Below, one piece after another: positions 19,441 to 63,850 of a stretch of DNA of 64,000 bases; the stretch's first letter is position 1; every line of letters starts with the position of its first letter. The stretch comes from Siphonodentalium dalli (taxonomy: Eukaryota > Mollusca > Scaphopoda > Gadilida > Siphonodentaliidae): assembly GCA_032622095.1 (NCBI GenBank), contig CP136069.1:153811043-153875042 (forward strand), given 5' to 3'. A model generated the notes under the pieces. The model made no database searches. It was given only the letters and a program-made list of their open reading frames with translations, and was not told where the DNA came from. A program made the translations under genes and the position numbers.

Positions 19441-20585
19441 ACACCAATATTAAAGTCCGGCGTCCGTGAGTCTGTACATCCCGAATCCTTTAGCACGGCC
19501 TAGAGCCCGTACCGATGCACCGATCATCATGAAATTTTTCGTGGATCACAACATTGGCATCTAGATGGGAACGAGTCATTTTGGGCTCATTTGCATAAAA
19601 AACATGGCCACTGGCAGCCATCTTGGATTTAAAAATTGCATCTTTTAGCACGGGCTAGAGGTCGCAGGATTGGTCCGATCATCATGAAATTTGTCATGGA
19701 GGTTGACATTGACATGTAGATGGGAACGAGTCATTTTGGTATGAATCCGTCAATAAACATGGCCGCCGTCGGCCATCTTGGATTTCAGTGATAACACTAT
19801 ATAAATCCATAATGCACCGTACAGCCTGTACCGATGCACCGATCATCATGAAATTTTTCGTGGTTCATGACATTGGCATCTAGATGGGAACGAGTCATTT
19901 TGGGCTCATTTGCATAAAAAACATGGCCACCGGCAGCCATCTTGGATTTTAAAATTGCATCCTTTAGCACGGGCTAGAGGTCGCAGAATTGGTCCGATCA
20001 TCATGAAATTTGTCACTGAGGTTGACATTGACATGTAGATGGGAACGAGTCATTTTGGTATGAATCCGTCAATAAACATGGCCACCATCGGCCATCTTGG
20101 ATTTCAGTGATAACACTATATAAATCCATAATGCACCCTATAGGCTGTACCAATGCTCCGATCTTCATGAAATTTTTCTTGGCTCATGACATTGGTATCC
20201 AGATATGAACGGGTCATTTTGGGCTCATTTGCATAAAAAACATGGCCGCCAGCAGCCATCTTGGATTTCAAAATTGCATCCTTTAGCATGGTCTAGACTT
20301 CACAGTATTCGTCCAATCATCATGAAATTTGTTATTGAGGTTGATATTGATATGTAGATGGGAACAAGTAATTTTGGAGTGGATCCATCAAGAAACATGG
20401 CCGCCATCGGCCATCTTGGATTTCAGTGATAGCGTTATATAAATCAATATTTCCTCCAATAACTCATACTGATGTATCAATCATCATGAAATATTTCATG
20501 GCTCATGACATGTCGATTTGAATTTAATTCATAGTCAAGTGTCACAAGTTAAGCTACTGTGTCATTGACACTTTCATTTTGAGGA
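19440..20585. repeat. Array of a ~310-bp dispersed repeat
   Basis: Successive units share ATCATGAAATTT, GATGGGAACGAGTCATTTTGG, ACATGGCCGCC and GCCATCTTGGATTTCAGTGA, with two alternating half-units (a 'GGGCTCATTTGCAT' form and a 'TGAATCCGTCAATAAACATGG' form). At least three full double units can be followed before the array decays near CACAAGTTAAGCTACTGTGT. Related fragments occur at 13470, 21160, 25335 and 54800. No coding content. Confidence 0.85.
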
Positions 20586-29777: not shown

Positions 29778-30139
29778 TAGTACATCAAACAGGTCATTAA
29801 CAGGAATCCGATACCGAAAATAATACAACACAATCCATACAGTATAGTTAAACAATATCCCATGTCATAATGAGCTCCATGTTGCTCACATCATAATTCC
29901 GGGGTAGTCTCCATTTGGTAATGTGTATTGGCTGGTCCCTATAAAAGGCTTATGTCTGGGTTCCCAACTGATAGTGTGCATTCGTGACGCCCCCCCCCCC
30001 CCCTTTCCAAATTTCCTGGATCCGCCCCTGCCCAATTCTTTGCCTGTACATCCGGATTTTTCTGTTTTTTCGCCATATGTAAAACGGGGCATGGATGCAG
30101 TATTTTGTATAATGAGCATCAGAAGTGAAATGAGCAATT

Positions 30140-30167
30140 GCAGTCAGGCTAGTATTACCCTGACTGC
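30140..30167 (+). other. CRESS-virus-type stem-loop origin, left copy
   Basis: Nine-base arms GCAGTCAGG and CCTGACTGC enclose a loop with TAGTATTAC (30150-30158). That is the canonical nonanucleotide nicked by Rep proteins of circoviruses and cycloviruses. The arms pair perfectly. In a functional virus Rep nicks within this nonamer to start rolling-circle replication; whether it is used here is unknown. Confidence 0.85.
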
Positions 30168-30926
30168 TGCTCATTTTGCTCACTTTATAGGAAGGATACG
30201 ATTGGCCGGTTCTTGATCCGCTGAAGCTCATTGGGTCACGAAAAATAAAGAGCGTTCATTAGGTTAAACTTCCAAATATGTATTGTATAAAGAGCGTACC
30301 AAAAAACGATAGTATATACGGGTGTCCGTTTTACATAGGGGGCTTTATGTAAAACGGAAGTGGGTGTTGGGACTTGAAACAGATACCAAACACTCACTTC
30401 CGTTTTACATAAAGCCCCCTATGTAAAACGGGAGAGCTTTTGGTAGTGTTGATGTAAAACGGTCCGTTTTACATAGGATTTCCTTATGGTTTTTTATCCA
30501 CATTCCAATTAAACTGGCATGTTCTCCCGGGTGTCCGTTTTACATAGGGGCTTAATGTAAAACGGAAGTGTTACATTGGCATTAAAGTGCAACGTCCTCA
30601 GATCTCTCTGAAAATGGAACCCTATGTAAAACTGACCGTTTTACATCAACACTACCAAAAGCTCTCCCGTTTTACATAGGGGGCTTTATGTAAAACGGAA
30701 GTGTTTGGTATCTGTTTCAAGTCCCAACACCCACTTCCGTTTTACATAAAGCCCCCTATGTAAAACGGACACCCGTATATACTATCGTTTTTTGGTACGC
30801 TCTTTATACAATACATATTTGGAAGTTTAACCTAATGAACGCTCTTTATTTTTCGTGACCCAATGAGCTTCAGCGGATCAAGAACCGGCCAATCGTATCC
30901 TTCCTATAAAGTGAGCAAAATGAGCA

Positions 30927-30954
30927 GCAGTCAGGGTAATACTAGCCTGACTGC
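30927..30954 (-). other. CRESS-virus-type stem-loop origin, right copy
   Basis: Mirror copy of the left origin: GCAGTCAGG, GTAATACTA (complement of the nonamer, 30936-30944), CCTGACTGC. It lies ~65 bp upstream of the Rep start codon and reads on the opposite strand to Rep. One adjacent base differs from the left copy. Confidence 0.85.
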
Positions 30955-31017
30955 AATTTCTCATTTCACTTCTGATGCTCATTATACAAAATACTGCATC
31001 CATGCCCCGTTTTACAT

Positions 31018-32271
31018 ATGGCGAAAAAAACAGAAAAATCCGGGTGTACAGGCAAAGAATTGGGCAGGGGCGGATCCAGGAAATTTGGAAGGGGGGGGGG
31101 CGTCACGAATATAGGCATCATCCTCGCCGCGAGTGGGGGTCCGGGAATGTTTTTGGATATTCCTTTATTTAAATAGTTCCAGTTTCATGGTCGAGGCGAA
31201 CGTCATGTACGTCATTTTACGTCAACGAGATGCGTATGGAACGTACGTTACATACGGATTTGTAAATATGGAACAGCAATAACACTGTATTTCTAGGAAC
31301 AAGCGTGTAATAAATGTGTGTTCCGATCTGGGTATGCACACATATAAAACACAAATCTCAGTTTATGTAGCTTATATGGAGACAAATGGCGCCCGGGCAC
31401 GTCCCTAAAAAATTCCTTGTTCTGGTGAAAATAGGGGGGCGCGCGCCGAGGGCGCCGGATGGTAGATCCGCCCTTGTTGGGTGTTCACAGTCAATAATTA
31501 CACGGAGAAACAATGGGACGAACTCCAAGACACAGAATTCAGCTACTTAATTATTGCACGAGAAGTGGGGGAATCTGGCACCCCCCACATCCAGGGATTC
31601 ATCCAAATGAAGGGCAAAAAACGTTTTACAGCGATGAAAAAAATCTTGCCGCTGATTGTCATATAGAGAAGATGATGGGAACAGCGAGACAAGCAAGCTA
31701 CTACTGCAAGAAGATGCATAAGGAACACCCAATGATGCCTTGCAACTATATTGAGAAGGGCCATTTAACAGAAGCCAGATCAGTTAATCTCGAGGCGATA
31801 ATCGAAGACATGGTTGCACAGGATAAAGGACCTACAGCTATGCTAAAAGAACACGGAACTCGCTACATTTTACACGAGGAAAAGTGTAGAAAAATCGCTG
31901 ATCGGATAATTGATTCATATGGCGAAATATCATTTACTGCAACTACTACACCGGACAATAACACTACAATCGAGTATAGGAAAAGACCCTGGGATTCGGT
32001 GGAGAAGATCGTCGATGGACATAGTCAGCGAAGGGGCGTCCGCCCTATCATGGCCTACGACACAGACAGCGACTCAGAAGATTTTGAGCCACAGAAAAAA
32101 CCTAAGAAGAAATCAGTAAAAGAGAGCCGAGTTACCAAGGAAAAGAGGGTGTTGTTTCAGCCTGTAGAATTTAACTTCCCTTACCTGGAACCCGAACAGA
32201 TACCAAACTCTCTAGAATTGAAGGAAATGGACACAGATTTCGACGAAGACATTTTTGAATCTTGTACTTAA
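31018..32271 (+). pseudogene. Endogenous CRESS-DNA-virus Rep (HUH endonuclease), broken
   Basis: The coding region starts at ATG 31018 at the end of the palindrome. It is interrupted by a 412-bp transposon (31065-31476) and resumes as FTVNNYT (HUH motif I), then GTPHIQGF (motif II, H-x-Q form usual in circo-like Reps). A frameshift near 31650-31665 moves the rest into another frame, which begins HIEKMMG and contains the motif III tyrosine in YYCKK. A one-base difference in an A run just after the start also separates frames between the two palindrome arms. Downstream I see no Walker A (GxxGxGK[S/T]) or other SF3 helicase motifs. Instead there is a basic stretch (PKKPKKKSVKE) and an acidic tail ending at TAA 32269-32271. 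Rep initiates rolling-circle replication by nicking the origin and joining its Tyr to DNA. This copy cannot make a full Rep as it stands. Confidence 0.8.
31065..31476. mobile_element. 412-bp TIR element inserted in Rep
   Basis: Ends CAGGGGCGGATC and GATCCGCCCTTG, inverted with one mismatch. The 5-bp target TTGGG is duplicated at 31060-31064 and 31477-31481. It carries a G run and GC-rich patches but no gene. Its left end reappears in the mirror arm (29980-30030), truncated at the palindrome edge. Confidence 0.8.
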
Positions 32272-32275
32272 TAAA
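32270..32275 (+). terminator. AATAAA overlapping the Rep stop codon
   Basis: AATAAA begins at the second base of the TAA stop. Such overlap is frequent in compact viral genomes and would serve for cleavage and polyadenylation. Confidence 0.5.
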
Positions 32276-35775: not shown

Positions 35776-35808
35776 ATGTAAAACGGACCGTTTTACATCA
35801 GCAGTAGC

Positions 35809-35916
35809 ATGTCGCTGTAATCATTTCTCAACAGTAATTTGTTGGATACAGTCGCTTAGTTTGACTTCTTATGCCAAAATGACCGGAATATCTAATCTCA
35901 GTAAGTACTTTTTGAT
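35809..35916. repeat. Duplicated promoter/first-exon segment, copy 1
   Basis: GTCGCTGTAATCATTTCTCA through AAGTACTTTTTGATTAT occurs here and again at about 36390-36500 with essentially no differences. A third, shorter copy (TATCTAATCTCAGTAAGTAC onward) starts near 36668, as part of a ~198-bp tandem repeat 36470-36865. Confidence 0.85.
35879..35900 (+). CDS. Gene D: candidate start exon, copy 1
   Basis: ATG at 35879 opens seven codons (MTGISNL) plus one base before a strong donor CA|GTAAGT at 35901. The phase (1) fits the acceptor of the exon at 38124. A palindromic ATGTAAAACGG/CCGTTTTACAT pair lies ~80 bp upstream. Such short first exons cannot be proven from sequence alone; support comes from exact duplication and phase. 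Confidence 0.4.
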
Positions 35917-36459
35917 TATAGTAGCTGCTTAGGAATATAATATAGGGAGCTTTGTGAAAAACGGGTGTCGATATGTAAAATGGACATTTTCATGTAAAAC
36001 GGTTTCCATATGTAAAACGAGCCATTTACATAGGCGGGGGGAATATGGACGGCGTTACCATGGTTGACAGACACGATGTACACGCTCTCCGAGATCTGTG
36101 GACGTTGCAGTTTAATGCCGGTGTGATCTGGTGATGTATAAAAACCCTATGTAAAACGCACACCCGTTTTACATAAAGATAAAAAGTCTTTCGCCCATAA
36201 ATCTTTATGTAAAGCGGTTTATGCAAAACGGACAAAATGAAAGTGAAAGTGAAATTGTTTCCCGCCCTATTTCCATTTTACATAAGTTGTTTACTAGCAT
36301 ATTTCGGTCGACCAATGAAACGGGCCGATTTGCATTGACGACCCTCCAATCAGCTACCGTTTAGCAATTTCCCGCCATATGACGCGTTTTTGTCGCTGTA
36401 ATCATTTCTCAACAGTAATTTGTTGGATACAGTCGCTTAGTTTGACTTCTTATGCCAAA

Positions 36460-36481
36460 ATGACCGGAATATCTAATCTCA
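36460..36481 (+). CDS. Gene D: candidate start exon, copy 2
   Basis: Identical ATG, seven codons and donor as in copy 1, 581 bp downstream. Both could act as alternative first exons to 38124. The third repeat near 36668 has lost the ATG. Confidence 0.4.
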
Positions 36482-37053
36482 GTAAGTACTTTTTGATTAT
36501 TAATCGCGGATTTTGTTCCAAATTGAAACCGTTTTACATATGAACTTTTAGGAGTTTCAATCAAACCGTTTTACATATGAACTTTAACATAATTATGTAC
36601 GGAATTTTTAGACTTTTTGGGTATGCATTTAGAGCATGCTATAGCGAATTTAAAAACAAACTGGTTAATATCTAATCTCAGTAAGTACTTTTTGATTATT
36701 AATCGCGGATTTTGTTCCAAATTGAAACCGTTTTACATATGAACTTTTAGGAGTTTCAATCAAACCGTTTTACAACTGAACTTTAACATAATTATGTACG
36801 GAATTTTTTGACTTTTTGGGTATGCTTTAGAGCATGCTATAGCGAATTTAAAAACAAACTGGTTAAAACCTTAGGCCGTTAGGGGCATGTTATAACTCAA
36901 AACTATCACCAAGTATTCATAGTAATAATTGTTATGCCCATGAAAAACGTAAGATTCCCTGGCACTAAACCTACAAAATAAGTCTGTTAAAGAATATAAG
37001 AAAAAATAATTAAAATTGTAAAAAATAACAACAAATGATGAAAAATTGTTAGA

Positions 37054-37120
37054 CCAATGCATTCTCTTATATATGCGAGGCGACCTATGGTCGACTCGCA
37101 TATATAAGAGAATGCATTGG
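37054..37120. repeat. Dispersed 67-bp hairpin, copy 1
   Basis: CCAATGCATTCTCTTATATA and its complement enclose TGCGAGGCGACCTATGGTCG. The structure is a near-perfect palindrome followed by CACAGGGTAAATG. Copies are at 58773, 58921 and 63697, and a half copy is at 37998-38032. Confidence 0.9.
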
Positions 37121-37997
37121 CACAGGGTAAATGCGTTGATACAAAAATCTGACCTGCAAATAACTTTTGATATGCAAAAAAAAATATTAAACCTCACTGT
37201 TACTTTTCTTTCACTGTAAAACGGGGCATGGGTGTAAAAATGTTATTTTCTGGTTTAAAGCGGTTTATGCAAAACGGACCACTAGGAAAGGTCCGTTTTA
37301 CATCAACACTACCAAAAAGCTGTCCCGTTTTACATAGGGGGCTTTATGTAAAACGGAAGTGGGTGTTGGGACTTGAAACAGATACCAAACACTCACTTCC
37401 GTTTTACATAAAGCCCCCTATGTAAAACGGGAGAGCTTTTGGTAGCGTTGATGTAAAACGGTCCGTTTTACATAGGATTTCCTTATGGTTTTTTTATCCA
37501 CATTCCAATAAAACTGGCATGTTCTCCCGGGTGTCCGTTTTACATAGGGGCTTTATGTGAAACGGAAGTGTTACATTGGCATTAAAGTGCAACGTCCTCA
37601 GATCTCTGGAAATGGAACCCTATGTAAAACAGACCGTTTTACATCAACACTACAAAAAACTGTCTTTATGTAAAACGGGTGTCCGTTTTATATAGGGGGC
37701 TTTATGTAAAACGGAAGTGGGTGTTGGGACTTGAAACAGATACGCACACCCGTTTTACATAAAAATGGCTTTTGTTTTCACACAACAGGTAGTGTTGATG
37801 TAAAACGGTCCGTTTTACATATGGTTTTTATCCCCCGCCCCCCGCCTATATAAAAACCCTATGTAAAACGGACCGTTTTACATCAACACTTCCGTTTTAC
37901 ATAAAGCCCCCTATGTAAAACGCACACCCGTTTTACATAAAAATGGCTTTTGTTTTCACACAACAGGTAGTGTTGATGTAAAACGGTCCGTTTTACA

Positions 37998-38084
37998 TAT
38001 GGTCGACTCGCATATATAAGAGAATGCATTGGCACAGGGTAAATGGGTTGATACAAAAATCTGACCTGGCACTGAAAGGGTTAA
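37998..38084. mobile_element. TTAA-type element end with half hairpin
   Basis: Half of the 67-bp hairpin, then GGCACAGGGTAAATGGGTTG and CTGGCACTGAAAGGG next to TTAA (38081-38084). This looks like the right end of a piggyBac-type MITE, of the same family as 58619-59018. Confidence 0.55.
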
Positions 38085-38123
38085 TTATTTTACTTAATAG
38101 GGTATTATTTCTTTTTATTCCAG

Positions 38124-38798
38124 TTCTGGGGCTATGCAAGTATAAAGCGCCTAATCATTGGTGGCCGGTGATGTCAGTTGTCGCTGGTGAATGAAAGTGG
38201 ATTGGCGCGGAGGGGGATGATTTTACCGAAGATGAGTACCCACCAATTAAGCCGGCTTCAACAAAGAATAAGACATTGGCGCTAGCATATGATGAGGCTG
38301 ATTTGATTTTCAATGGCCTTAACAAAGGGCGGCCTTCGCCGACACAGTCGCCGTTGCCGAATCTGACAGAGTCGCCGACACATTCGCCGTTGCCGAATCA
38401 TACAGAGTCGCCGACACATTCGCCGTTGCCGAATCAGACAGTCGCCGACACATTCGCCGTTGCCGAATCAGACAGAGTCACCGTTGCCGACACAGACACA
38501 GTCGCCGGAAAAGTCAAGACGTACCTCGTCTCGACAGTCAAGACGTACCTCGCCTCAAAAAGGGATAAAAAGACCTTCAGCGACACAGTCAAGGTCACCG
38601 TCGCCTTTGCCGACAACGTCAACCCATACCTCGCCTCGAAAAGGGATAAAAAGACCTTCAGCGACACAGTCAAGGTCACCGTCGCCTTTGCCGACAACGT
38701 CAACCCATACCTCGCCTCGAAAGACACAGTCAAGGTCACCGTCGCCTTTGCCGACAACGTCAACCCATACCTCGCCTCGAAAAGGGATAAAAAGACAG
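38124..38798 (+). pseudogene. Gene D: exon 2, Ser/Pro-repeat exon with two lesions
   Basis: Starts after TTTTTATTCCAG in phase 1 and ends AAAAGACAG before GTAATT in phase 0. The frame reads LGLCKYKAPNHWWPVMSVV, then meets TGA at 38192-38194. It continues open (EDEYPPIKPA..) into SPTHSPLPN repeats of a 36-bp DNA unit. In the third repeat two bases (GA of ACAGAGTCG) are missing, near 38443-38450, which moves the frame. The shifted frame stays open to the donor with ATQSRSPSPLPTTSTHTSPR repeats (81-bp DNA unit, 38571-38790). The protein would be a nuclear-looking, SP/TP-rich, basic protein. I do not recognise the family. Confidence 0.5.
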
Positions 38799-38851
38799 GT
38801 AATTTTATTATAATTTCATTATAAAAACATACCATTTAGTAAAGGTATATG

Positions 38852-39305
38852 TTAAACGAGTCCCATGTTGGACGTTTGAAAGGTAATTTCTATGTTTTAC
38901 AGAGACATATGTAATAGGTCACTGTCAAACTGATATGTAAAACGGGGCATGGGTGTAAAAAGACCATTTTGCATAGGTGTGTACATGTATCAGTTCTATT
39001 TATATTAAACGAGTCCCATGTTGGACGTTTGAAAGGTAATTTCTATGTTTTACAGAGACATATGTAATAGGTCACTGTCAAACTGATATGTAAAACGGGG
39101 CATGGGTGTAAAAAGACCATTTTGCATAGGTGTGTACATGTATCAATTCTATTTATATTAAACGAGTCCCATGTTGGACGTTTGAAAGGTAATTTCTATG
39201 TTTTACAGAGAAATATGTAATAGGTCACTGTCAAACTGATATGTAAAACGGGGCATGGGTGTAAAAAGACCATTTTGCATAGGTGTGTACATGTATCAGT
39301 TCTAT
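38852..39305. repeat. Three tandem copies of a 153-bp unit
   Basis: Units start at 38852, 39005 and 39158 (TTAAACGAGTCCCATGTTGG) and differ by only a few bases. Each contains TATGTAAAACGGGGCATGGG, so each carries one iteron-like word. It lies in the intron of gene D between exons 2 and 3. Confidence 0.95.
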
Positions 39306-39345
39306 TTTTTGGTATGTTAAACGGCAATGTTACTTTTCTTTTCAG

Positions 39346-39738
39346 CGTGCCGAGTCTACACCGAGAAAAGATGTTGCCAAGCCTACACCCAACTCAAAGA
39401 AAATGAAAAGAGAATACATGAAGTTGATCAACAAAAAATTCATAAATGACACCCACCCGTCGGTACAAAAGACGTATGCAGGAAGACCGTCAAGGACGCA
39501 GCACGGCCAATTTGAAGCATCTGATGTGCCTTCTTTGAAGGAAACTATCAAAGCTAAATGGTGTGACAACATAAGACTCACGTGCAAATCTAAAGGAGGT
39601 TGTTTGAATTGTTCTCTGCACAATCAAGCGTCTGTATATACACACATATATAGATATCACTGTACCTACAAGACGCCTAAGTCTGATGAAGTAAAACAAC
39701 CCAGAAAGGGCAAACGATTCCAAATAGTTTATTGCTAG
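39346..39738 (+). CDS. Gene D: exon 3, basic terminal exon
   Basis: Follows TTTTCTTTTCAG in phase 0, matching the phase-0 end of exon 2, and runs to TAG 39736-39738. The peptide is strongly basic (PNSKKMKREYMKLINKKF), then GRPSRTQHGQFEASDV, a KAKWCDN segment, and a possible zinc-binding C..CKSKGGCLNCSLH cluster. The cluster suggests DNA or RNA binding, but no family is recognised. A decayed second copy of the last ~150 nt, including AAAGGAGGTTGTTTG, lies at 39895-40040. Confidence 0.5.
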   Translation, partial: RAESTPRKDVAKPTPNSKKMKREYMKLINKKFINDTHPSVQKTYAGRPSRTQHGQFEASDVPSLKETIKAKWCDNIRLTCKSKGGCLNCSLHNQASVYTHIYRYHCTYKTPKSDEVKQPRKGKRFQIVYC

Positions 39739-39748
39739 TAATTCTTTA

Positions 39749-39893
39749 TACATGTATCTTCATTCAACCAAAAACAATAAGTAACTCTTTATGTGCCGAA
39801 TCAAAATTTTAGCAAACAGCGTGTATCTTCATTCAACCAAAAACAATAAGTAACTCTTTATGTGCCGAATCAAAATTGGAGCAAACAGCGTAC
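39749..39893. repeat. ~71-bp direct repeat
   Basis: TGTATCTTCATTCAACCAAA through CAAAATT..AGCAAACAGCG occurs twice head to tail directly after gene D exon 3. Confidence 0.9.
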
Positions 39894-40152
39894 CTTCCTT
39901 AAAGGAGACAATAAATGGTTTGACGGTATCAAGCTAATGTCGAAAGGAGGTTGTTTGCTGTTTGTTTTGTTTCACTGCATAATGGTATGCTTCTGTGTAT
40001 ACTCACATTTACAGGTACCATTGCAAGACACCTTCATCCGAAGAACTTGTATGGCTTTTGTATCAACCCATATTTCCTTGATAATTTTTCAGATTTATGG
40101 ATTATAATAATGTGATACATTGATGGAAAGAGCTCTTCAGCATTATTATTAT

Positions 40153-40318
40153 TGCAAATAACTTTTTATATGCAAAAAAAAATATTAAACCTCACTGTTA
40201 CTTTTCTTTCACTGTAAAACGGGGCATGGGTGTAAAAATGTTATTTTCTGGTTTAAAGCGGTTTATGCAAAACGGACCACTAGGAAAGGTCCGTTTTACA
40301 TCAACACTACCAAAAGGA
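40153..40318. repeat. Direct copy of the 37157-37317 segment
   Basis: The run from GCAAATAACTTT through TCACTGTAAAACGGGGCATG to CATCAACACTACCAAAA matches 37157-37317 nearly base for base. It brings three more ATGTAAAACGG-type words 3 kb downstream. This is the right-hand limit of the iteron-bearing sequence seen here. Confidence 0.9.
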
Positions 40319-40447
40319 TATAGCTGTGAAATATCTACTACAATTTTACATTTCTGAAGGTGAAATTCACCCACATTCTTGAATACAGAAATAATTAGTG
40401 CTCCCTGGGTTTGACTTTTACAACAACATAATTTTTTTTATATCCAG

Positions 40448-40809
40448 TTATTCCAGCACATTGCTTCAAAACTAAGGATGCTTGGAGCGAAACTGTGCCC
40501 CTCTTACAGAGTAGATTACAAAATATAGCTTTATCTATCGAGAATAGATTCAATCTGAATGCAGTGATCAAAATCGAAGAAATTGTTTCGTTGGTCAGTC
40601 AACTGGCTGATGTATTAAATGTTGATGGCTGTTTATCTTTGCTGGAAGAGAGTTTGAGGATTATTACAAATGAGATGGACTATCAAACAGATGTTTTGAA
40701 AATACCAAAACCTTTACAGCTCACTGGAAATCGAGGTTGTACAAGATATATAATCCCACGCTCAATGCACAGGCAACTTGTAGAAAAATATTTTAAAAAT
40801 ATACATTAA
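40448..40809 (+). CDS. Unidentified exon with GNRGCTRYIIP motif
   Basis: Begins after TTTATATCCAG (phase 1) and is open to TAA 40807-40809. It encodes a helical segment (SRLQNIALSIENRF, EEIVSLVSQLADVLNV, LEESLRIITNEMDY) followed by LTGNRGCTRYIIPRSMHRQL. The G.RG...Y.IP...L pattern resembles a linker seen before a helix-turn-helix in transposon-derived proteins of fish and molluscs, but the match is weak. It may be a further exon of gene D. Confidence 0.4.
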
Positions 40810-41112: not shown

Positions 41113-41964
41113 CCCTTAAGGGCCGATATACGAATAATACGTGTTTTCAAATTTCCCGCCGGAATATTCGCGTGTGGACCGCCCACCCGGAACTTCTAGT
41201 TTGAATTGAATGCGCATATATCTATGACGTAGTACGCAATGCAAATGGTCGACATCGATCGAATATTTTGATCAATATTTTTAATTTTATCGAGCCATCT
41301 GTTTACATTTACTTCCGGGATTAGTAAACTGAAAATGAAATGCCAACCTTGAGGTCAAAACCGGCGGAAATACCCGTTTATAGCGACATTGATAGCGACG
41401 AATCGAGACGATGAGACAGGTGATGTCTCACCTGTGGCAACAGGTGGGTGGAGTGAAAATGTTGTTCCTCACCGGATACCAATATTTGATCAAACTGATT
41501 GCGGCCCAGTTCATAATTTGGACACCAGTTCTTCAGAACCTGATGATCACAGATGAAATAATTAAACATATTCAACACAATATAAAGATGAATCTGTGAT
41601 ATTGAAAAATTGGACATTCACTAATGACACTGAGATCCGAGCGCTGATTGGAGTTCTCCTCGCCATGGCAATTGCACAATTACCCTCAGTTCGTGATCAT
41701 TGGAGTGTCAATCCTTGGCTACGTTCACCAAAGATTGCTGAAGTGTTCACTCGGGACCGCTTTGAATCTGTCTTACATTTTATCCACGTCAATGACAATG
41801 AATATGATTTGCCGATTACCTCCACCGCACGGGATAAATTATTCAAAATCAGACCTTTTTTGAATATGGTGTCAGTTCAGTTTTTGAAGTGTTGCAAACC
41901 ATCACAACCAGTAAGCATTGACGAGAGCATGATCACCTTCAAGGGAAGATCGTCAATAAAATAG
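41109..41964 (+). pseudogene. piggyBac transposase remnant, N-terminal part
   Basis: TTAA at 41109-41112 is followed by CCCTTAAGGGCC, a typical piggyBac terminal repeat. Coding traces begin near 41370 (acidic IDSDESRDDE), with frame changes before 41596. From 41596 the frame reads IRALIGVLLAMAIAQLP, RDRFESVLHFIHVND, KLFKIRPFLNMV and SIDESMITFKGRSSIK. The D in DESM is the first catalytic Asp of the DDD triad. The frame ends at TAG 41962-41964, where family members continue with Q-Y-MP. piggyBac cuts and pastes at TTAA. Confidence 0.85.
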
Positions 41965-41967
41965 TAT

Positions 41968-42443
41968 ATGCCCAAAAAGCAGATCAAACATGGTTTTAAA
42001 AATTGGGTCATGGCATGTCCGAACACAGGTTATACATACGGATTTGATGTCTACACAGGAAAGGGCGCGTCTGATTCGGAAGGCGAAAACCTTGGTGCAA
42101 AGGTTGTAAACAGACTTGTGTCGCTTTTACCGTACAACAAAACAAACTACATCGTTCATTGTGATCGTTTCTTTTCTTCCTGTTGCTGGAACAGAGCTTG
42201 TTGGATGACAATATCTACTTTTGTGGGACAATTATGTCAAATCGTAAGGGAATGCCGAATGAACTAAAAGACAAAAAGGTGCTAAATAAAATTGACCGGG
42301 GAGAAAGCATGGTTCGACAAAAAGGAAAGATTAGCGTTGCTGCATGGAAGGATAATAAGCCTATCCATATGATATCTACAGCCTATCCTGTTATCGGCAA
42401 CACAACATGTAAAAGACGAAACAAGACTGGTGAACAAAAAGAG
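41968..42443 (+). pseudogene. piggyBac transposase remnant, catalytic middle
   Basis: Continues from the stop as YMPKKQIKHGFKNWVMA and GFDVYTGK, then VHCDRFFSS, where the D is the second catalytic Asp (family form: DNFFTS). A frameshift near 42180 moves to another frame with LLDDNIYFCGTIMSNRKGMP, the GT.R.NRKG.P block. Coding homology is cut at 42443 by the TIR element and picks up again after 45841. Confidence 0.85.
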
Positions 42444-42868
42444 CAGCCCTGGGAATTAAGGAAAATTTGCCTAGGCAATATATTTGATGAGGAGAAAAAA
42501 ATCGGCGTAGGCAATAACAGATTTTACCTAGGCAATTTTGCAACAATAATGCCATCTCAAATCAATATGATTCAATAATAACCTAAAATGTTTAGTTATT
42601 TTGGGGAACATTATTTCCAGGCCACTACTCAACATTATGTACAATTCCACATATCATCTCCAAAATAAGTGTCCATACACCGGGTAGTTAGTTAATGGCC
42701 CAGAGCCATGGAAACAATTGTAGGACAATATATGTAAAGAGTGATTTAAGGAAGTCATTTTGGCTAAAGACACAAATCAATTTTAGTAACCCAATGAACT
42801 TGTATCACCTAGGAAATATAATTGCCTAGGCAAACAAATTTTGCCTCTGCTTTTAGGGTTGAAGTTTT

Positions 42869-46730: not shown

Positions 46731-47480
46731 ATGGGAGGTGTCGACCTAGCTGACCAATTGGCATCATACTATTCAGTTGGATATCCTTCAAATAAGTGGT
46801 GGCATCGTTTTTTTTCCCACTATATCAATGTGTCAGTCGTAAATGCATACATACTGTTCAAACAAATTCATCCAGATGGTGCATATACCAAAACGACATC
46901 TGAAGATCATAAGAAGTTCCGGCTTGCACTCTTGTGAACAGCTTACCTGTGGGTATTCCGGTCGGAAACGACATTCAAGTTCCGAAACTATCATTGTTGG
47001 TGGGAACCATAAGTTGCAACATCAGTACGAGAAATTCCCTGGCCTGAGTCTACAGTGTAGATTATGCCAAGAAAAGGCCAAAGACTTGAGAGCTAGCAAC
47101 TTCTCGGCTAAACGACCTAGAGAATCGAGTTACGGTTGTAAAGCCTGTGGCAAGCATCTCTGCATAGAGAATCGAGTTACGGTTGTAAAGCCTGTGGCAA
47201 GCATCTCTGCATAGAGAATCGAGTTACGGTTGTAAAGCCTGTGGCAAGCATCTCTGCATAGAGAATCGAGTTACGGTTGTAAAGCCTGTGGCAAGCATCT
47301 CTGCATAGAGAATCGAGTTACGGTTGTAAAGCCTGTGGCAAGCATCTCTGCATAGAGAATCGAGTTACGGTTGTAAAGCCTGTGGCAAGCATCTCTGCAT
47401 AGAGAATCGAGTTACGGTTGTAAAGCCTGTGGCAAGCATCTCTGCAGATCATGTTATGCTGCTACCCACTAAGTTACCAA
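46731..47480 (+). pseudogene. piggyBac transposase remnant, C-terminal part with zinc finger
   Basis: MGGVDLADQLASYYSVGYPS at 46731 is the signature block of the family and holds the third catalytic Asp. It is followed by KWWHRFFSHYINVSVVNAYI. A frameshift near 46935 moves to a frame with LQCRLCQEK and YGCKACGKHLC, the C-terminal cysteine-rich finger. The finger codons were then expanded as a 47-bp tandem repeat, introducing a stop at 47212-47214. A normal-looking end (HLCRSCY..TH then stop) follows the last repeat. Confidence 0.85.
47119..47446. repeat. Seven tandem copies of a 47-bp zinc-finger-coding unit
   Basis: Units starting AGAGAATCGAGTTACGGTTG begin at 47119 and then every 47 bp to 47401. 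The unit codes for the YGCKACGKHLC part of the piggyBac finger. Since 47 is not a multiple of three, each copy shifts frame; six extra copies total 282 bp, a multiple of three. Copies are almost identical, so the expansion is young. Confidence 0.97.
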
Positions 47481-54799: not shown

Positions 54800-55400
54800 C
54801 TGTCAATGACATGTAGATGGGAACGAGTCATTTTGGGGTCAATCGGCCAAAAAACATGGCCGCCAGCAGCCATCTTGGATTTTTACTCTTTGAATCACTA
54901 AATCCTTTAGCACAGGCTACAGTTCGTACCTCTGATCAGATCTTTATGACAATTGTCATATTTGTTGACATTGGCATGTAGATGTGAACAAGTCATTTTG
55001 GGGTCACTCAGCAAAAAAACATGGCCACCAGCAGCCATCTTGGATTTTACTCTTTGCATCACTAAAACGTTTAGCATAGGCTACAGGTCATACATTTGGT
55101 TGGATCTTTATGAAATTTTTCATGGTTGTTAACATTGACATGCAGACGGGAACGAGTCATTTTGAGGTCATTCGGCAAAAAAACATGGCCGCCTGCAGCC
55201 ATCTTGGATTTTACTCTTTGCATCACTAAAACGTTTAGCACAGGCTGCAGGTCATACATATTTGTTATGACTGTTGACATCTCTCAGGATCAACTACTGT
55301 CTCATTGACACTTTCAGACATCTTATTCATTGTTCAACAAAAAGTAAATTGCAAAAGTTGAGCTACAGTGTCATTGACACTTTCATGTATTTGAAGTTCA
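54800..55400. repeat. Dispersed 'GCCATCTTGGATTT' repeat, right cluster
   Basis: Three successive ~170-bp units with GATGGGAACGAGTCATTTTGG (or variants), ACATGGCCGCCAGCAGCCATC and ACTCTTTGCATCACTAAA. They end in the CAGTGTCATTGACACTTTCA tail seen also at 20560. Confidence 0.85.
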
Positions 55401-58004: not shown

Positions 58005-58772
58005 GTAAGCTTGAGATATAATAACTTAATTAACTTGGACAGCTGAATTGGATGTATTTTATCACCAAAAAGGCCAATCCCGGTTTTGTTGCCATGGCTT
58101 TATGATGGCAACCATGAATTTATTGGGCGTGACCATTTGTTGGCAGTCATCATATATGCACCAACAGCGCCATTCATTAATATGATTATTGCCTAAACGT
58201 ATGAGGACAAAAGAGCTTTAAAATCACAGGAATGAAATCTACGAGGAAACATCGCACTGAATGAGTTAAAAAGATACCAGCATCTAACTGGTTAGGGTGA
58301 ACAACAGGTTGAGCGAAATTATTCTGATTAACTAAAACCATCATGGTTGAATTTATTTTTTTGAGGGGGGTGTGGGAGCGCTTCACAGACACTGAAAAAT
58401 AAATGCTGCACCATATGGGCATTTGAACTGTTTTAGTCTATTGTTGGTGTAATTAGGCTGACTAATATTTAACTGTAGGAGTTTTCTAGATTATAGTGTA
58501 CTAGGCCATACACACCAATGAAAGTATCATTCAGTATGGACGGAATCAAGCATTAATTGTTTATGTAGAAAATTGAGGGATATTTTTGCCTTTGGAAGAC
58601 TCAATACACATAATTTATTTAACCCTTTACCCAACAAACCGGCCAAAACCGGCCAAATAAAGCTTCAACAGCCTAAAATATCTTCGGTCTGTCTCAATAG
58701 AACCATACAAATATGGATATCATTGGAACCGGCTCCTTGACCACATTGTGATAGTTACAGTTATGCCCTGTG

Positions 58773-58839
58773 CCAATGCATTCTCTTATATATGCGAGTC
58801 GACCATAGGTCGCCTCGCATATATAAGAGAAAGCATTGG
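58773..58839. repeat. Dispersed 67-bp hairpin, copy 2
   Basis: CCAATGCATTCTCTTATATA arm, centre GACCATAGGTCG, complementary arm with one mismatch (AAGCATTGG). It is preceded by GCCCTGTG, the inverse of the CACAGGG that follows the other copies. Confidence 0.9.
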
Positions 58840-58920
58840 CCTAAAAAAAATCTTTTTTTAACACTTTTTACCATTTTTTCTTACATTCTTTAACAATTTT
58901 AAAATTTTTAATGTGTTAAG

Positions 58921-58987
58921 CCAATGCATTCTCTTATATATGCGAGGCGACCTATGGTCGACTCGCATATATAAGAGAATGCATTGG
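58921..58987. repeat. Dispersed 67-bp hairpin, copy 3
   Basis: Identical to the copy at 37054 over the whole palindrome as far as I can see, followed by CACAGGG. Confidence 0.9.
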
Positions 58988-59219
58988 CACAGGGCCGTTC
59001 TGTTGGGTAAAGGGTTAAGACTGAGGCGATCTCAAACCTAGACAGACAACTGAATTTTGCCAAACTAAATTGTCGTTCCAGGACTCTTTTACACGCCATA
59101 CACATTTAATTGCTCTGTAATTTATATATGCCCCACACAAATGTATAGACCCATGCCCCATAATTAGCAGCGTGTCTCTGCATGTCTTAGCAGTTATTCC
59201 TATATTATTTTTTTTCCAG

Positions 59220-63610: not shown

Positions 63611-63696
63611 CACGACGAGTGGTCAATCCGGACGTCGACATTATGTTTACCATACTATGGTATGGGTAAACATAAAAATGATAAAAAATTGTTAGG

Positions 63697-63763
63697 CCAA
63701 TGCATTCTCTTATATATGTGAGGCGACTTATGGTCAACTTGCATATATAAGAGAATGCATTGG
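63697..63763. repeat. Dispersed 67-bp hairpin, copy 4
   Basis: Same palindrome with several central differences (GTGAGGCGACTTATGGTCAAC), followed by CACAGGGTAAA. An inverted relative of the 10675 palindrome lies ~30 bp upstream. Confidence 0.88.
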
Positions 63764-63850
63764 CACAGGGTAAAAAAATCCCGACTTACGAATGGATTTG
63801 ATATGGCGGGTCACATTTGACAAACAAACTAAACTCAACCTTTTTGTTTC

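What the first reader, a model, noticed from the sequence alone, without database searches (positions are those of the whole stretch)
29980..32275. CRESS-virus-type Rep gene next to a canonical TAGTATTAC stem-loop inside an animal genome window
Seen: motifs FTVNNYT, PHIQGF and YYCKK of an HUH Rep, and a perfect 9-bp stem with the nonanucleotide TAGTATTAC ~65 bp from the Rep start. Known: circo- and cyclovirus Reps nick this nonamer. Inference: this is an endogenous viral element or a Rep-derived mobile element, with origin and endonuclease still side by side. Preservation of the complete origin in two copies is unusual for a viral fossil.
Basis: partly seen in the sequence, partly recalled or inferred. 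Interest (0 to 1): 0.88.

Follow-up and report, generated by a model that had tools for sequence, protein, structure and literature searches.

The report
Decayed CRESS-type Rep family with origin
A eukaryotic genome holds several decayed copies of the replication gene of a small circular-DNA element; this copy, unlike those it was compared with, still has its hairpin origin, doubled by a later mirror-image duplication.

Summary
In detail: a CRESS-type Rep nuclease (Viral_Rep, E 3.7e-12) lies beside TAGTATTAC on a perfect 9-bp stem. This Rep is a pseudogene: a 412-bp insert with TTGGG on both sides near the start, motif III in another frame than motifs I-II, and no helicase. The two origins are arms of one inverted duplication, 29980-31110 (488 of 493 ungapped positions identical), whose right edge lies inside the insert; the left origin is a later copy. 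In the 2.23-Gb genome Rep has seven further close copies on C5 and C6 (three of them one segmental duplication) and diverged matches on C6 and C7. The helicase is present elsewhere in the family (PF00910, E 8.2e-7), so its loss here is a deletion, shared with one copy. Six of six other copies that carry both flanks lack the insert. Five of five that cover the origin lack the nonamer hairpin. The repeat CCGTTTTACAT is tied to Rep: of 58 hairpin pairs genome-wide, 47 of the 50 listed lie in the two Rep clusters. Most likely a fossil Rep-origin-iteron replicon, multiplied mainly by chromosomal duplication; virus or mobile element stays open.

The parts
29980..31110 (.). Inverted duplication (palindrome) with an iteron array in its centre
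   Evidence: 488 of 493 ungapped positions identical, 5 substitutions, 3 gap runs; 329 of 330 for 30065-30394 against 30700-31029
30140..30167 (+). Left origin stem-loop (later copy): 9-bp stem, TAGTATTAC at 30150-30158
30927..30954 (-). Right origin stem-loop beside the Rep start; TAGTATTAC at 30936-30944 on the strand opposite to Rep
   Evidence: absent from five of five other copies compared
30326..30768 (.). Iteron array of CCGTTTTACAT / ATGTAAAACGG: about 32-bp hairpins and 23-bp head-to-head pairs
30905..30911 (+). TATA-like motif TATAAAG in front of Rep; TATAAA invariant in the seven aligned stretches
31007..31017 (+). Iteron directly in front of the likely start codon; invariant in the seven aligned stretches
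31018..31064 (+). Likely N-terminal fragment of Rep; mirror copy at 30031-30076 (-); the two copies differ by a frame-changing length difference
31065..31476 (+). 412-bp MITE-like insert; ends match as imperfect inverted repeats (12 of 14), TTGGG on both sides (31060-31064, 31477-31481); TTGGG stands once in the six other copies that carry both flanks
31481..31663 (+). Rep HUH nuclease, motifs I and II
31654..32271 (+). Rep, other frame: motif III, linker, then directly the C-terminal part of about 120 residues; the helicase segment (583 bp in copy L010) is missing at a 6-bp direct repeat, 31908-31913; stop codon overlaps AATAAA
32272..32363 (+). Conserved downstream stretch; five other copies stay alike somewhat further and end together at ...GACCCTAAA
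37325..37719 (+). Second copy of array 30326-30719, without origin or Rep
   Evidence: 366 of 376 ungapped positions identical, 4 gap runs
35776..40301 (.). Dispersed iteron cluster: 31 of the window's 46 exact 11-mers, 5 of 7 copies of the extended 20-mer

Best explanation
A decayed, chromosomal copy of a CRESS-type replicon: Rep (nuclease, SF3 helicase, a C-terminal part without known relatives), a promoter with the nonamer hairpin, and large arrays of an 11-mer. In the working ancestor (inferred) Rep docked on the 11-mers, one of which abuts its start codon, opened the hairpin and nicked TAGTATTAC to start rolling-circle replication. Shown here: this copy lost the helicase segment between 6-bp repeats, took a 412-bp insert near the start, changed frame, and then had the array edge, origin, Rep start and first 46 bp of the insert duplicated in mirror image. 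Other copies kept the helicase but lack the hairpin. Later multiplication was at least partly chromosomal: the three C6 copies lie in one segmental duplication, and the copies show no sign of selection on Rep.
For: Rep nuclease; helicase in related copies; stem-loop; TATAAA, 11-mer and start codon invariant in seven aligned stretches; TTGGG twice around the insert here, once in six of six copies with both flanks; palindrome edge 46 bp inside the insert; hairpin pairs 58 in the genome, reversed control 0, 47 of 50 listed in the two Rep clusters; C6 stretches colinear at 98.6-99.5 percent in their longest pieces; variable sites by codon position 28/28/12, variant codons 6 synonymous and 61 not.
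Against: No relative outside this genome was found, so no tree. Binding of Rep to the 11-mer is inferred; the nearest one is 52 bp from the stem, and arrays occur at two places without a Rep match in the 8-10 kb fetched (C3, C5:3.90 Mb). That the hairpin is ancestral and was lost elsewhere, rather than gained here, is inferred. Fragments of the interrupted start occur beside the insert repeat at two other places, so the insertion may predate this locus. The third-position deficit is unexplained.
Confidence: 0.75

Rival explanations
1. Rep-derived mobile element: copies moved as a rolling-circle transposon with a defined end, arrays travelling also without Rep.
For: Several copies on three contigs; five copies end together at ...GACCCTAAA in three different flanks; arrays without Rep on C3 and at C5:3.90 Mb; precedent of geminivirus-like transposons (PMC3198968).
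Against: Left end not shared: upstream alikeness of the copies stops at different places; C6 copies are segmental duplicates; C5 and C6 clusters share array-plus-fragment pieces, so one origin followed by duplication is possible; no purifying selection.
Confidence: 0.35
2. Endogenous virus: one or a few integrations of a CRESS virus, perhaps as a concatemer, then decay and segmental duplication.
For: Full CRESS domain set in the family; order Rep, array, Rep fragment in the clusters; endogenous CRESS elements printed from molluscs and other animals (PMC6069186); diverged matches at 65-77 percent on C6 and C7 suggest older events.
Against: Arrays far larger than recalled for CRESS origins; no capsid gene recognised (few frames scanned).
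Confidence: 0.5
3. The 11-mer arrays are an unrelated satellite and Rep sits there by accident.
For: 3 of the 50 listed hairpin pairs lie away from the Rep clusters; three 11-mers in a 153-bp tandem repeat.
Against: 47 of 50 lie in the Rep clusters, and the 11-mer abuts the start codon in the seven aligned stretches.
Confidence: 0.07
4. Misassembly or contaminating virus.
For: Palindromes are error-prone; no reads were available.
Against: Very long contigs (9 in all) with diverged copies at several places; arm differences.
Confidence: 0.03

Closest known systems
Endogenous CRESS / circoviral elements (PMC6069186), listed for Modiolus, Mytilus, Biomphalaria and Conus
   Same: Broken Rep sequences in chromosomes
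   Different: Here with origin hairpin, large iteron arrays and a C-terminal extension; no sequence comparison with those was possible
Circoviridae with type II organisation (table passage of PMC6186406)
   Same: TAGTATTAC hairpin close to Rep, nonamer on the strand opposite to Rep (meaning of type II recalled)
   Different: No capsid gene recognised; arrays; C-terminal extension
Geminivirus-like transposon of Tuber melanosporum (PMC3198968)
   Same: Multicopy Rep-bearing elements in a eukaryote
   Different: That one has 37-bp terminal inverted repeats and transposase frames; none found here
Replitrons (second-hand, PMC10741241)
   Same: HUH endonuclease in eukaryotic chromosomes
   Different: Direct terminal repeats not found here; this Rep is of Viral_Rep type and its family carries an SF3-type helicase

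Membership tests
CRESS-type Rep and origin | HUH nuclease with motifs I-III | tested here: met
CRESS-type Rep and origin | SF3 helicase (Pfam RNA_helicase) behind the nuclease | tested here: met
   for the family: E 8.2e-7 (L010) and 2.6e-4 (L008). Not met by the window's own copy, which lacks the segment; no G....GK[ST] in the five segments tested
CRESS-type Rep and origin | Nonanucleotide in a stem-loop near Rep | tested here: met
   window copy; absent in five of five other copies aligned
Circoviridae | Capsid gene | tested here: inconclusive
   none recognised among 11 window stretches scanned with Pfam, two of them Rep pieces; most frames not scanned
Circoviridae | Circular genome of about 2 kb | not testable with these tools
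   needs circular-DNA reads
Rep-derived transposon | Dispersed copies with shared ends | tested here: inconclusive
   right end shared by five copies in three flanks; left end not shared
Replitron | Short direct terminal repeats and target duplication | tested here: inconclusive
   no shared left end found; definition
Helitron | Rep fused to an SF1 helicase (recalled) | tested here: not met
   helicase segment matches PF00910 only

The most novel reading that the evidence does not exclude
A CRESS-type replicon became a chromosomal family in which outsized, palindromic arrays of Rep-binding sites multiply both with and without Rep and make their surroundings prone to inverted and segmental duplication, while origin hairpin and helicase were lost in different copies, so that no copy compared here carries the whole machinery.
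Probability: 0.3. Interest if true: 0.65.

Novelty: new variant of a known kind. Interest (0 to 1): 0.45.

Why it matters
Endogenous Rep genes are known, but a family in which promoter, putative binding sites, origin and Rep can be compared copy by copy lets one see which parts of the initiation module are lost first, and whether repeat arrays of a viral initiator become unstable sites in a chromosome. It also shows how a mirror-image duplication can make one fossil origin look like a conserved pair.

Tried and rejected
Rejected after test: two origins kept by selection; stem-loop by chance; a helicase-less Rep lineage, which was my reading until the genome search answered and the missing segment of other copies matched PF00910; I lowered the interest and rewrote the novel case for that reason. 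Also corrected on checking: the 330-bp arms are 329 of 330, not identical.

Led nowhere: protein database (the length limit let the 61-residue query meet short proteins only), IMG/VR by protein (in 22 and 107 pattern matches, 18 and 5, none confirmed) and by DNA pattern, GTDB genomes with the second piece (11 pattern matches, none confirmed), plasmids with the first piece, Rfam, tRNA, PHROGs and NCBIfam (nothing below E 0.04), PDB for the second piece and the helicase piece (only an unrelated ribosomal protein at E 0.054), single-sequence fold of 31654-32268 (mean pLDDT 43.6, not used), the 11-mer in the literature (10 papers listed; one opened at the passage: the 11-mer lies in an unrelated gene sequence). 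A genome-wide search for the origin hairpin, for the origin stretch and for PF02407 did not complete. No phylogeny: no relatives outside the genome.

Full report
Observation. 31481-31663 matches Pfam Viral_Rep at E 3.7e-12 and, below cut-off, Gemini_AL1. In the PDB ten Rep chains match from E 7.4e-6 (2hwt_A; nanovirus by recall), then three unrelated chains at E 0.47 and above. Motifs I, II and III start at 31484, 31583 and 31699; the third is in another frame. TAGTATTAC occurs twice, each time on a perfect 9-bp stem; 1 of 200 simulated windows reached 9 bp for any NANTATTAC site; the left copy folds with z -5.9. The bare nonamer would not be remarkable (13 of 100 shuffles).

Anatomy of this copy. 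The likely start codon (31018) follows directly on an 11-mer CCGTTTTACAT; a TATAAAG lies at 30905. The nonamer of the right origin is on the strand opposite to Rep. At 31065-31476 lies an insert of 412 bp with 12 of 14 matching terminal positions and TTGGG on both sides. In the other copies that carry both flanks, C5_3810, C5_4147, C5_4154, C5_4157, C6_26660 and C6_26714 (six of six), start and nuclease are contiguous and overlap in the query by exactly these five bases: natural empty sites for an insertion with a 5-bp target duplication. Against a simple picture, 5' parts of the insert with TTGGG occur at C5:4153 kb (three times in a row) and C6:26763 kb, next to an 18-bp match to the Rep start, so the interrupted start may have existed before and spread.

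Palindrome. 29980-31110 is an inverted duplication: 488 of 493 ungapped positions, 3 gap runs; 329 of 330 in the core. Its right edge lies 46 bp inside the insert, its left edge in the mirror image of that end. The simplest order is insertion first, inverted duplication later, with the switch at the iteron hairpins (inference). Gene conversion is the alternative.

Genome. The window is C9:153811043-153875042 of a genome of 2,226,750,531 bases in 9 contigs (no name given). The stretch 31654-32271 gave 27 matches, pieces counted singly. They resolve into eight close copies including this one (C9; C5_3810, 98 percent and full length; C5_4147, C5_4154, C5_4157; C6_26660, C6_26714, C6_26757), smaller fragments beside arrays, and diverged matches at C6:69.89, C6:71.76 and C7:163.17 Mb (65-77 percent). 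The tool calls its counts lower bounds. The three C6 stretches are colinear at 98.6-99.5 percent in their longest pieces, so they are one locus multiplied by segmental duplication.

Helicase. In other copies the two halves of the query are separated by a segment of about 560-600 bp; in L010 it lies in one open frame that reaches the C-terminal end. Its translation matches PF00910 at E 8.2e-7, that of L008 at 2.6e-4. Five of the eight copies carry the segment, C5_4154 a remnant, and C9 and C5_3810 none; in the last two the junction falls in a 6-bp repeat (31908-31913) found at both ends of the segment. Hence deletion between short repeats, shared by two copies. My earlier reading of a helicase-less Rep lineage is withdrawn. 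No G....GK[ST] motif was found in the five segments tested, so the helicase may be degenerate or of variant motif. The C-terminal part of about 120 residues is shared by the copies and has no Pfam match.

Origin across copies. In an alignment of the two window arms with five other copies, TATAAA, the 11-mer and the start codon are invariant, but the five others lack the nonamer and most of the hairpin, keeping only the equivalent of one stem arm. In the 12 fetched stretches (110 kb) there is no NANTATTAC with a stem of 7 bp or more. The same gap in all five suggests one ancestral loss in their line; gain in C9 is not excluded. The genome-wide hairpin search did not complete.

Iterons. In the window the 11-mer occurs 46 times (0.01 expected): 15 in the palindrome, 31 at 35776-40301. 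Genome-wide the paired form occurs at 58 places, reversed control 0; of the 50 listed, 1 is on C3, 8 on C5, 41 on C6; the window has 7 by my count. Of these 50, 47 lie in the two Rep clusters (C5:4.14-4.16, C6:26.66-26.78 Mb); C5:3.905 Mb (2) and C3:34.98 Mb (1) have no Rep match in the 8-10 kb fetched. The array 30326-30719 has a copy at 37325-37719 (366 of 376).

State of the copies. All five copies read from the start meet a stop before the end of the C-terminal part (91, 41, 73, 197 and 340 codons); the test failed for C5_3810, which lacks the start, and C6_26757 lacks it too. Variable sites in eight copies fall 28/28/12 on codon positions 1/2/3, with 6 synonymous and 61 other variant codons: no sign of purifying selection; the deficit at position 3 is unexplained. 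Five copies (C5_3810, C5_4149, which is the end of C5_4147, and the three C6) stay alike to the same point downstream...GACCCTAAA, in three different flanks; C9 and C5_4154 leave earlier. Upstream, alikeness ends at different places.

Comparison with print. Passages only: endogenous CRESS elements including molluscs (PMC6069186), ssDNA-virus-like transposons (PMC3198968), nonamer and organisation types (PMC6186406; meaning of type II recalled), domain set of CRESS Reps (PMC6668415), Replitrons second-hand (PMC10741241; original not held). In the listings I saw no title describing such arrays with a Rep family; these searches cover an open-access library only, and searches listed part of their hits.

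Verdict. A real, decayed CRESS-type Rep-origin-iteron family; a new variant of a known kind. The most striking point of the finding, two preserved origins, has an ordinary explanation; what remains of interest is the family with arrays and unequal losses.

Noticed in passing
35776-40301: Second, larger cluster of the 11-mer with tandem, inverted and dispersed duplications, without nonamer hairpin or Rep match.
   Followed up: partly
C3:34978001-34986000 (L029) and C5:3900001-3910000 (L030): Arrays of the 11-mer (12 and 17 exact copies) without a Rep match in the stretch fetched.
   Followed up: partly
C6:69886001-69895000 (L031) and C7:163168001-163178000 (L032): Diverged Rep relatives (65-72 percent in nuclease, linker or helicase pieces) without 11-mers: perhaps an older layer of the family.
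   Followed up: partly
eight Rep copies: Fewer variable sites at third codon positions (12) than at first and second (28 each); unexplained.
   Followed up: no
41596-42578: Broken piggyBac-type transposase (DDE_Tnp_1_7, E 4.3e-22 and 1.6e-10).
   Followed up: no
38195-40809: Three open frames that look like exons by eye; only low-scoring Pfam matches below cut-off (best E 2.3e-4 to a repetitive part); a 153-bp tandem repeat with the 11-mer between the first two.
   Followed up: partly
37054-37121, 58766-58994, 63676-63774: Palindromic MITE-like repeat in several copies, one at the edge of the second iteron cluster.
   Followed up: no
47118-47446: 47-bp unit repeated 7.0 times, 100 percent matches.
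   Followed up: no
19499-20511 and 54807-55259: 319-bp and 164-bp tandem repeats with similar units by eye.
   Followed up: no
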